The notes under the pieces: model-generated
Seen by the model: the letters and a program-made list of their open reading frames with translations, nothing else
Told to the model about the DNA's origin: nothing
Databases searched by the model: none
Position numbers and translations under genes: made by a program
DNA from: Fidelibacterota bacterium
GTDB taxonomy: Bacteria; Marinisomatota; Marinisomatia; Marinisomatales; UBA1611
DNA: 14,535 nt
Direction: 5' to 3'
NCBI GenBank assembly: GCA_002718285.1
Contig: PBAR01000040.1
Location: 1-14,535, forward strand
Part shown: piece by piece, positions 10,010 to 12,295 of the stretch
How the letters are laid out: every line of letters starts with the position of its first letter
Position numbering within the stretch: position 1 is the stretch's first letter

Positions 10010-10200
10010 GATACGCCCATTATTTGATCAAGTTTTCTTCTGCTAGGTTTATCCAATTTAGCCAATACCATGCCCAGATCCATGAGACTGTTTATATTAT
10101 GGACTGGCAAAAATTCATCCACTCTGGGCAGGATGGCCTGAATTCTCTGGGTGATGTATTGATAGCCTTCAAATCCCAGATTGGAATTCAGCCAGATCAA
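10006..10200 (-). pseudogene. C-terminal remnant of a CoxE-like VWA-domain protein
   Basis: A 64-codon open frame, with a TAG a few codons upstream of 10200 and no ATG until codon 40; the first codon here is TTG. It overlaps the last 32 bases of iorB in another frame. The peptide reads WLNSNLGFEGYQYITQRI, then ILPRVDEFLPVHNINSL and a short basic helix. This resembles, from memory, the end of CoxE-family VWA proteins, where a WLNP strand is followed by an ALPxVDxFLPxHNLxSL-type segment. CoxE and its AAA partner CoxD mature Mo hydroxylases, and neighbours mocA and xdhC belong to the same job. I infer that most of coxE has been lost and only its tail remains, still ending in the ATGA that couples to mocA. 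A short expressed peptide started from TTG is the alternative. Confidence 0.5.
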
Positions 10201-12295
10201 TTGGGAGCTGGCGGAAGCGTTTTCCGGTGGCTACATATACAGCATTGGTCACTGCAGGTGCAATTGGTGGTAGTCCAGGTTCACCTACTCCTTTTGGAGG
10301 TTTATCGCTATCAACCAGATAAACTTTAATCTTTGGGGTTTCATCCATTCTTATAACATCAAAGTCATCAAAATTACTTTCTACCACTTTTCCGTCATCA
10401 ATTGTTATCTTACTTTTTAGTGTTGCGGATAATCCATATATGATAGCACTCGAGATCTGTGTTTTTACAATATTTGGATTAATGACTAAACCACAATCCA
10501 CCGCACAATGCACTTCATGAACTTTTATCTGATTATTTTCAACTGATACTCGAGCGACCTGTGCCACCCAAGTACCAAATGATTTATGGGATGAAAATCC
10601 TTGATATATAGGGCCATTACTGAAACTTTTCCATCCGGAACGATCGGCCACTAGTTCTATCACGGATGCATCTCTTGAATTCTCAGGTAATAACTCCAGT
10701 CTGAAATTTATAGGATCTTTACCCGCTTTTTCAGCGAGTTCATCCATAAAACATTCATTCGCAAAAGCATTTTGAGAACTATAAACTGAACGCCAAAAAC
10801 CCAACGGTATGTCCGTTTTCGTCATTTGGTAATCCACCTGCATATTGGGTATTTGATAGGGTATATGTTTTGCTCCTTCAGTACTAATTAGATCTAATTT
10901 TTCCTTGAATGGAAAGGGTATTGTAACTAACTGTGAAAAAAGAATTGATGGTGCAGTAATTCTGTGTTTCCAAACAGTCAAATTCTTTTTTTGGTCAAAT
11001 GCACCCTTCATTACATGAAGACTAGCAGGCCTATAATAATCATTTTGCATATCTTCTTCTCTTGACCAAGTCAATTTAATAGGTTTTTTTACAATGTTAG
11101 CGATTTCGACCGATTCCTTTACAAAGTCATTAGAACTTCTTCTACCAAATCCGCCACCAAGGTACGTTACATTTACTTCTATTTGCTCCTTTTTAAGACC
11201 AGTTAGTTTAGAAACAATTTTCAGTGCACCATTTGGATTTTGAGTTCCAACCCAAATTTGACATTTTGTTTCTTCCACGGATATCGTACATGACATTGGT
11301 TCCATCGTGGCATGAGCCTGAAAGGGGGATTGATAAATCGCTTCTAAAATATTTTTAGACGATTTAAGTGCCCTTTTAACATTTCCTTTTTTACGAACAA
11401 CTCCACCTCGCTTTTTACTAGCTTTCATTAATTCTTCTGTAATTTGATCAGTATTTACACCTTTTGCTTCTCCTTCATTCCAATTTATTTTGATTTTTTT
11501 GGCAGCTTTAAGAACAGTCCAAGTATTATCACCGACTATTGCAATCCCGCTTTCAATTTCGAAAATATCAAGGATTCCGTTAATACCGTCTAAACTATTT
11601 TTCTCAAATGATATAACTTTACCACCAAAAATTGGAGAGTGGACGACAGTCGCATAAACCATACCATCCAATTTTATATCAAGGGCAAATTCCGCTGTGC
11701 CATTAATCTTTGGCAGGGTGTCTTTTCTACTCATATTTTTTCCAATAATAGAAAAATTTTTTGAATTTTTTAGGGTAGGATTTTTAGGAATTAATTGCTG
11801 ACCGGCTTTAGTCGCTAATTCACCATATGATATTTTTTTATTTGTTTTTTCATGGAAGACTTTGCTTGAATTAGTTATACACTCATTTTCTGGCACACTC
11901 CAATACTCAGATGCGGCAATAACTAACATTTCTCGTGCGGTAGCGCCCGCTTTTCTGAGCTTCATAAAACTGCTAGAGATTGAATTACTTCCACCCGTCA
12001 TTTGCGAGCCATATTTACTGCGATCTGCTGGTGCTTTTTCCACAATAACCTTGGACCAATCCAGATCCATTTCTTCAGCAATGATCATTGGCAGTGAAGT
12101 TATAACTCCTTGTCCCATTTCAGATTTTCCAACCATGATTTTGACATAGTTATCAGGTTGGACATTTATCCATGCATTGGGTTCAAATGTTTTTGAATTT
12201 AGATTTTCTCCTGCAAATTTATTTGGTAAATAAAATCCAAGGAACAGTCCTGGCCCTGCCGTGGAGGTTACTTTAATGAATTCCCTTCTATTCAT
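10169..12295 (-). CDS. IorB-type molybdopterin-binding subunit, Tat-exported (xanthine oxidase family)
   Basis: The large catalytic subunit (708 residues) of an isoquinoline/aldehyde oxidoreductase-like Mo hydroxylase, which would hydroxylate an N-heterocycle or oxidise an aldehyde using water. The ATG at 12295 has AAGGA about eight bases upstream and overlaps the iorA-like stop by 8 bases; an upstream ATG at 12325 would bury the signal. The protein then opens MNRREFIKVTSTAGPGLFLG, a twin-arginine signal, implying folded export to the periplasm. Cofactor-binding segments are visible: GQGVITSLPMIIAEEMDLDW, QAHATMEPMSC, YLGGGFGRRS, GFWRSVYSSQNAF, and GVGEPGLPP near the C-terminus, carrying the catalytic Glu (about 672). 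The substrate is unknown. The DNA is clearly more AT-rich than the flanking genes, and the last residues after RQLPI look unlike the family (see findings). Confidence 0.9.
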   Translation of the reverse strand: MNRREFIKVTSTAGPGLFLGFYLPNKFAGENLNSKTFEPNAWINVQPDNYVKIMVGKSEMGQGVITSLPMIIAEEMDLDWSKVIVEKAPADRSKYGSQMTGGSNSISSSFMKLRKAGATAREMLVIAASEYWSVPENECITNSSKVFHEKTNKKISYGELATKAGQQLIPKNPTLKNSKNFSIIGKNMSRKDTLPKINGTAEFALDIKLDGMVYATVVHSPIFGGKVISFEKNSLDGINGILDIFEIESGIAIVGDNTWTVLKAAKKIKINWNEGEAKGVNTDQITEELMKASKKRGGVVRKKGNVKRALKSSKNILEAIYQSPFQAHATMEPMSCTISVEETKCQIWVGTQNPNGALKIVSKLTGLKKEQIEVNVTYLGGGFGRRSSNDFVKESVEIANIVKKPIKLTWSREEDMQNDYYRPASLHVMKGAFDQKKNLTVWKHRITAPSILFSQLVTIPFPFKEKLDLISTEGAKHIPYQIPNMQVDYQMTKTDIPLGFWRSVYSSQNAFANECFMDELAEKAGKDPINFRLELLPENSRDASVIELVADRSGWKSFSNGPIYQGFSSHKSFGTWVAQVARVSVENNQIKVHEVHCAVDCGLVINPNIVKTQISSAIIYGLSATLKSKITIDDGKVVESNFDDFDVIRMDETPKIKVYLVDSDKPPKGVGEPGLPPIAPAVTNAVYVATGKRFRQLPIDLAEFQSGI

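What the first reader, a model, noticed from the sequence alone, without database searches (positions are those of the whole stretch)
10169..10210. Apparent recombination junction: iorB ends inside the remnant of a CoxE-like gene
The family-typical end of IorB (ATGKRFRQLPI) finishes at about 10200. The next residues, DLAEFQSGI, come from DNA that in another frame reads IWLNSNLG, the resemblance to a CoxE tail. So the last nine or so residues of IorB appear to be CoxE DNA read out of frame. A TAG closes the CoxE frame just upstream, there is no ATG for 40 codons, and the remnant still carries the ATGA coupling to mocA. The simplest reading is that iorAB entered, or replaced, a cox-like Mo hydroxylase and its coxD/coxE genes, leaving only the coxE 3' end.
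Basis: partly seen in the sequence, partly recalled or inferred. Interest (0 to 1): 0.72.

Follow-up and report, generated by a model that had tools for sequence, protein, structure and literature searches.

The report
Deletion scar of a lost cox operon
In this marine bacterium one molybdenum-enzyme gene runs out of frame into the last stub of another gene, most likely because a deletion of about seven kilobases removed a carbon-monoxide-dehydrogenase-like operon that a relative still carries.

Summary
IorB's family-typical part ends at the ATT codon 10201-10199. Its last nine residues (DLAEFQSGI) are CoxE DNA read out of frame, and the CoxE frame (open 10230-10009) still overlaps mocA by ATGA. 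The remnant is 91% identical over 65 aa to the C-terminus of an intact 406-aa CoxE (P0126) and 69% over 61 aa to that of L001. L001, a Neomarinimicrobiota relative, has dmsA-iorA-iorB-coxG-S-L-M-coxD-coxE-mocA-xdhC-nifS, so iorAB and cox stand in tandem there. The simplest history is a deletion of about 6.9 kb (L001 scale) from the end of iorB into coxE, not entry of iorAB. L001 carries a 13-nt direct repeat beside both breakpoints. Of 22 IorB proteins nearly identical in their C-terminal third, 6 have the junction tail and 16 end in KFA, so the deletion appears to segregate. In 245 genomes of the phylum, two more keep only a coxE 3' stub beside mocA and one a coxE with in-frame stops. This is an ordinary gene-loss scar, well documented. 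Unusually AT-rich iorAB leaves an allele-replacement variant open. No DNA of a KFA haplotype could be fetched.

The parts
10202..12325 (-). iorB, family-typical part (residues 1-708)
   Evidence: MoCoBD_1/MoCoBD_2; aligned with 14 relatives
10199..10201 (-). junction: codon ATT (I709), shared by the iorB end and the coxE side
   Evidence: IorB haplotypes end ...LPIKFA (16) or ...LPIDLAE[FSP]QSGI (6); L001 has ATT at both corresponding places, 12119-12121 and 19006-19008
10169..10198 (-). acquired IorB tail DLAEFQSGI and stop, read from coxE DNA out of frame
10006..10200 (-). coxE 3' remnant: last 64 codons and stop (LIWLNSNLGFEG...IMGVS)
   Evidence: 91% over a 65-aa alignment to intact CoxE P0126, 69% over 61 aa to L001 CoxE; PF05762 tail, below gathering score
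10231..10233 (-). TAG closing the coxE frame; it comes with V698 (GTA). Haplotypes with Ala698 cannot have this stop; P0001 reads MQPPENAS here
   Evidence: codon reasoning
10006..10009 (-). ATGA overlap of coxE stop and mocA start
   Evidence: same overlap in L001
9428..10009 (-). mocA, molybdenum cofactor cytidylyltransferase-like
   Evidence: TIGR03310 170.8 bits (curated cut-off 186.45, not reached); PF12804
8659..9438 (-). xdhC-like, sulfuration/insertion factor for xanthine-oxidase-family enzymes
   Evidence: PF13478, PF02625
7491..8690 (-). NifS-like cysteine desulfurase (aminotransferase class V)
   Evidence: PF00266; NifS label from reading
12288..12776 (-). iorA, 2Fe-2S subunit
   Evidence: PF01799, PF00111
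12818..14479 (-). 3' part of a dmsA-like molybdopterin oxidoreductase, neighbour of iorA also in L001 and L002
   Evidence: PF01568; neighbours; 94% to L001

Best explanation
The junction is the scar of a deletion. The ancestor had dmsA-iorAB-coxGSLM-coxD-coxE-mocA-xdhC-nifS on one strand, as L001 still does. A deletion, about 6.9 kb on L001's scale, joined the ATT near the iorB stop to the ATT before the LIWLNPN codons of coxE, probably by slippage or recombination between short imperfect direct repeats. It removed the form II CoxSLM hydroxylase and its CoxD/CoxE factors. IorB runs nine residues into coxE in another frame, probably harmless because IorB C-termini vary after LPI. mocA, xdhC and nifS stayed because IorAB, another xanthine-oxidase-family enzyme, still needs that cofactor branch. 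The coxE stub remains as mocA's upstream overlap and is decaying. Shown: the remnant, the junction, L001's intact arrangement, the two IorB end types, changes at invariant CoxE positions. Inferred: the deletion itself, its repeat mechanism, the reason mocA-xdhC were kept, and that KFA haplotypes still carry cox.
For: Tandem iorAB-cox-mocA in L001. Intact CoxE with a 91% identical tail (P0126). Junction-type P0005 and normal-ended P0014 are 696 of 699 identical, and junction-type P0007 differs from its nearest KFA proteins at 5 positions and from its nearest junction protein at 9, as expected of alleles shuffled in one recombining population. P0001, with the same junction, reads WLNPN in the coxE frame; IorB tails with Ser or Pro at the fifth residue (P0005, P0006, P0008, P0009) fit WLNPN most simply, the window's Phe gives WLNSN (codon reasoning). 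At 22 near-invariant positions of 120 intact CoxE tails the window departs at P6S, P15Y and G19R, where P0126 keeps the common residue. The only exact match of 10 nt or more between the 40 nt at L001's iorB end and the 7 kb downstream is a 13-mer at 12124/19010, beside both breakpoints; its score was reached in 7 of 300 Markov targets. The junction is not one assembly's error: P0004 is on 14 contigs, P0005-P0009 on one each, from two sources.
Against: No DNA of a KFA haplotype or of P0126's contig could be fetched, so the undeleted locus of the same species was not seen. L001 is only 71% identical in IorB. The 13-nt repeat lies in L001, not in the ancestor, and the window junction falls one base out of its register (ATT side). 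iorAB's low GC3 hints at a separate history for iorAB. Divergence of the remnant from L001 (pS 0.70, pN 0.18, 64 codons) is like iorB's (0.73, 0.17), so it does not itself show relaxed selection. A review says a role of one XdhC for several molybdoenzymes remains speculative (passage of PMC2997495), which weakens the reason given for keeping mocA-xdhC.
Confidence: 0.7

Rival explanations
1. Allele replacement: an AT-rich iorAB segment from a relative recombined in behind dmsA, and its right end crossed over illegitimately inside coxE, so that cox was lost in the same event.
For: Window iorA and iorB have GC3 27.0 and 26.3% while the other 12 genes have 34.8-45.8%; L001's iorA and iorB are 37.4%. 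GC dips over about 10200-12800. IorB residues 12-57 of the window, P0004 and P0009 are a divergent allele block.
Against: No significant tree conflict: holding the window clade with L001 and its sister rows in the iorB tree gives p-AU 0.41; the xdhC tree has window+L001 at only 75/75, and the nifS and mocA trees are unresolved. L002 too has low-GC3 iorAB (30.1 and 34.5%), so part of the dip may be gene-specific. iorAB already sits upstream of cox in L001 at the same site. AT-rich iorAB is compatible with an older exchange followed by a deletion.
Confidence: 0.2
2. The coxE tail is a retained functional mini-gene or leader, for instance a small protein or a coupling element needed for mocA translation.
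For: A coxE 3' stub lies beside mocA in the window, L189 and L190; L002 keeps KTMAVS and the ATGA overlap. In P0001 the stub starts with ATG, and P0003 is another 75-aa CoxE tail.
Against: Stub lengths differ (64 codons in the window, matches of 83 aa in L189 and 115 aa in L190, about 6 codons in L002), no common start is seen, the window's frame meets TAG where P0001 has a sense codon, invariant residues are replaced, and L167 keeps almost nothing.
Confidence: 0.06
3. Assembly chimera or sequencing artefact.
For: None found.
Against: P0004 lies on 14 contigs and five further junction-type proteins come from other contigs; the P0001 cluster has 7 members.
Confidence: 0.02

Closest known systems
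CoxE (PF05762, VWA protein of aerobic CO dehydrogenase operons)
   Same: The remnant is the C-terminal end of this family, next to mocA and xdhC as in fuller operons of the phylum
   Different: Only 64 of about 406 codons remain; the VWA core with the MIDAS-type DxSxS motif (motif recalled; DVSAS in L001's CoxE) is gone
Form II CoxSLM operon (AYRGAGR, order coxSLM; role called unclear or unresolved in passages of PMC13203968 and PMC13240472)
   Same: L001 carries it exactly where the window has the junction; its CoxL reads AYRGAGR
   Different: Absent from the window; only the coxE 3' end is left
Operon-loss deletion scars between short direct repeats (established kind, from general knowledge)
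   Same: Two same-strand genes fused at a short shared word, 3' stub of the distal gene retained and changing
   Different: Nothing essential; here near-identical IorB proteins with and without the scar exist

Membership tests
CoxE / VWA_CoxE (PF05762) | score above Pfam gathering score 26.4 | tested here: not met
   18.9 bits (64 aa), 23.1 bits (74 aa)
CoxE / VWA_CoxE (PF05762) | homology to the C-terminal end of intact CoxE | tested here: met
   91% over 65 aa to P0126; 69% over 61 aa to P0124
CoxE / VWA_CoxE (PF05762) | VWA domain with metal-binding motif | tested here: not met
   the frame matches only profile 177-221 of 222
Decaying gene remnant | truncated against intact homologues of relatives | tested here: met
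   64 codons against 406-407 aa
Decaying gene remnant | changes at positions invariant in intact copies | tested here: met
   P6S, P15Y, G19R; the common residue is in 120 of 120 intact copies at each
Decaying gene remnant | not translated or not functional | not testable with these tools
   frame still open over 74 codons; no expression data
Form II cox operon | coxSLM order and AYRGAGR motif at the undeleted locus | tested here: met
   L001 12786-16497, CoxL contains AYRGAGR; Pfam domains. In L001 only; the window's own species was not seen undeleted
IorB / xanthine-oxidase-family Mo subunit | MoCoBD_1 and MoCoBD_2 domains | tested here: met
   no NCBIfam cut-off reached among the 13 families listed

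The most novel reading that the evidence does not exclude
In Neomarinimicrobiota the stretch between dmsA or iorAB and mocA-xdhC is a recurrent deletion site. Form II cox operons are lost again and again down to a coxE 3' stub while the shared MocA-XdhC-NifS cofactor branch is kept, and in the window's species the deleted and undeleted alleles still segregate, giving a natural experiment on what form II CoxL does.
Probability: 0.4. Interest if true: 0.45.

Novelty: new member of a known kind. Interest (0 to 1): 0.3.

Why it matters
The activity of form II Mo-CODH is described as unclear or unresolved (passages of PMC13203968 and PMC13240472). A population in which an otherwise near-identical locus comes with and without the operon would allow comparison of habitats or expression between the two alleles; whether the normal-ended haplotypes do carry the operon is still to be seen. 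It also warns that the 64-76 aa frame before mocA should not be annotated as a small protein without evidence, and that a coxE-family hit beside mocA does not prove a cox operon.

Tried and rejected
Stand-alone small gene: not supported, on differing lengths, lost start and invariant changes (P0003 remains unexplained). Tail common to all IorB: rejected (6 of 120 listed). Tree conflict as proof of iorAB import: a first test that held L001 with the window clade but left out L001's sister rows gave p-AU 0.0018; that grouping was wrong, and with the sister rows included p-AU is 0.41. In the same call the L001+L002+L167 test for iorB (p-AU 6e-65) left out sister rows too and is not used. A GC3 of 51% first printed for iorB of L167 was read out of frame; in frame it is 35.8%. 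A count of invariant positions restricted to the 84 of 120 proteins containing IWLNP was circular for one position and was redone on all 120. pS/pN of the remnant against L001: synonymous sites near saturation, uninformative. CoxL absence as a mark of stub genomes: not specific, see full report. mocA in genome contigs found nothing; CoxE and IorB in viral contigs found nothing.

Full report
What is there. On the minus strand the window reads dmsA-like (cut by the window end), iorA, iorB, mocA, xdhC, nifS-like, then further genes that read as moa/moe (the latter not tested by a family search). iorB ends ...RQLPI DLAEFQSGI; the codon of I709 is 10201-10199. In another frame the same DNA, open from 10230 to 10009, reads PPENASASSQLIWLNSNLGFEG...DQIMGVS and stops in ATGA with the mocA start. 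PF05762 matches the 74-aa frame at E 5.7e-5 over profile positions 177-221 of 222, below the gathering score; the 64-aa peptide alone reaches E 0.0011.

Is it CoxE? Yes. A search with the CoxE of L001 listed 120 CoxE proteins of 2589 that passed. The window's stub is 91% identical over 65 residues to the end of P0126, an intact 406-aa CoxE, and 69% over 61 residues to L001's. Homology begins at LIWLN, that is at 10200, within the ATT of the junction.

Alleles. Among 120 listed IorB relatives (6938 passed), P0004-P0025 are 22 proteins 98-100% identical to the window over the C-terminal third searched. P0010 and P0025 lack or misread the N-terminal part. Six end DLAE[FSP]QSGI and sixteen end KFA. 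Over residues 11-709 the window itself is 674-676 of 699 identical to most KFA proteins, while P0005 (junction) and P0014 (KFA) differ at 3 of 699. P0007 (junction) differs at 5 positions from its nearest KFA proteins and at 9 from its nearest junction protein, so the junction seems to have been shuffled among iorB backgrounds. P0001, a 76-aa predicted protein from another contig, is the same stub with a sense codon instead of TAG upstream, and so has an ATG. The window's TAG goes with V698, seen only in the window and P0004.

Undeleted arrangement. L001 (Candidatus Neomarinimicrobiota isolate BH1) has, on one strand, dmsA, iorA, iorB (10016-12133), coxG (12302), coxS, coxL, coxM (12786-16497), a short unassigned frame, coxD (17019-17975), coxE (17981-19204), mocA, xdhC, nifS. 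Pfam confirms an AAA ATPase, VWA_CoxE and the CoxSLM-type domains; coxG is my label, from reading. CoxL reads AYRGAGR, form II. ATT near the iorB stop is 12119-12121 and ATT before LIWLNPN is 19006-19008, so the equivalent deletion is 6,887 bp. A 13-nt direct repeat, ATTTGGTTAAATC at 12124 and 19010, is the only exact match of 10 nt or more between the iorB end (40 nt) and the next 7 kb; its score was reached in 7 of 300 Markov-shuffled targets. The window's junction fits the ATT end of this imperfect repeat, one base out of register with the 13-mer.

Decay. Of 64 stub positions, 22 are near-invariant (at least 118 of 120) in intact CoxE. The window departs at four: I36 is shared with intact P0126; P6S, P15Y and G19R are not. 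P0001 has P15Y and G19R, and I36. pS and pN against L001 say nothing.

Other lineages. In 245 genomes of the phylum, 24 have a coxE match, 25 places in all. Nineteen places are full or nearly full length, one of them (G138) with three in-frame stops. Four are cut by a contig start. Two are internal stubs beside mocA: L189 (G143; CoxE 314-396, behind a coxG-like fragment with stops) and L190 (G021; CoxE 279-393). G021 and G138 have no CoxL match at 1e-100 and G143 only a 32% one. This is not specific: in that of 20 genomes had no match, among them G142, G011, G003 and G072 with full-length coxE, and G004 had none at 1e-20. The assemblies are fragmented and their completeness is not told, so absences are soft.

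L002 and L167 (G055) have iorB followed by mocA after 87 and 83 bp, and their genomes show no coxE and no form II CoxL (best hits 25-28%). L002 keeps the codons KTMAVS before mocA, as at the end of intact P0125, which argues for loss there; L167 shows no clear remnant, so loss is inferred only from kinship. The two are nearest to each other in IorB (86%), so this may be one event. One search gave 37 xdhC matches, of which 30 came as loci: 21 have coxE next to mocA/xdhC (two of them the stubs above) and 9 do not, one of these (L166) cut by its contig end.

Deletion or replacement. Window iorA and iorB have GC3 27.0 and 26.3%, the other twelve genes 34.8-45.8%; L001's are 37.4%, L002's 30.1 and 34.5%. 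Trees do not settle it (p-AU 0.41). Because iorAB already precedes cox in L001 and normal-ended near-identical IorB exists, I favour deletion (0.7) over replacement (0.2).

Function. In O. carboxidovorans coxE is needed for growth on CO, and CoxD and CoxE are placed in cluster maturation (passages of PMC4240915). XdhC and MocA act for xanthine-oxidase-family enzymes, though a role of one XdhC for several enzymes is called speculative (passages of PMC2997495). That loss of CoxSLM made CoxD/CoxE dispensable while MocA-XdhC remained useful for IorAB is my inference.

Literature. The listings (14 of 14; 5 of 5; 6 of 6; 10 of 22 listed) show no title that describes this junction or cox loss in Marinimicrobia; a term search of PMC13240472 shows no mention of the phylum. 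Most subscription papers are not held.

Noticed in passing
10169-12776: iorA and iorB are markedly AT-rich at third codon positions (26-27%) compared with the other twelve genes of the window (34.8-45.8%).
   Followed up: partly
IorB residues 12-57 (about 12292-12155): A divergent N-terminal allele block shared by the window, P0004 and P0009 but not by the other near-identical IorB proteins; looks like a recombined segment.
   Followed up: partly
L189 (G143:C27) 3801-4448 (-): Degenerate coxG-like fragment followed by a coxE 3' stub directly before mocA: looks like an independent cox loss.
   Followed up: partly
L190 (G021:C26) 4503-4913 (-): coxE 3' stub overlapping the end of an unrelated 357-aa frame, directly before mocA.
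   Followed up: partly
L199 (G138:C9): Nearly full-length coxE with three in-frame stops; no CoxL match at 1e-100 in that genome.
   Followed up: partly
L001, about 16590-16970: Short unassigned, apparently membrane-type frame (MNLNTIFKVNAVVAGLFG...) between coxM and coxD.
   Followed up: no
window 5346-6308: A 320-aa frame that reads as a MoaC-MoaB/MogA fusion (label from reading, not tested by a family search).
   Followed up: no
   Followed up: no
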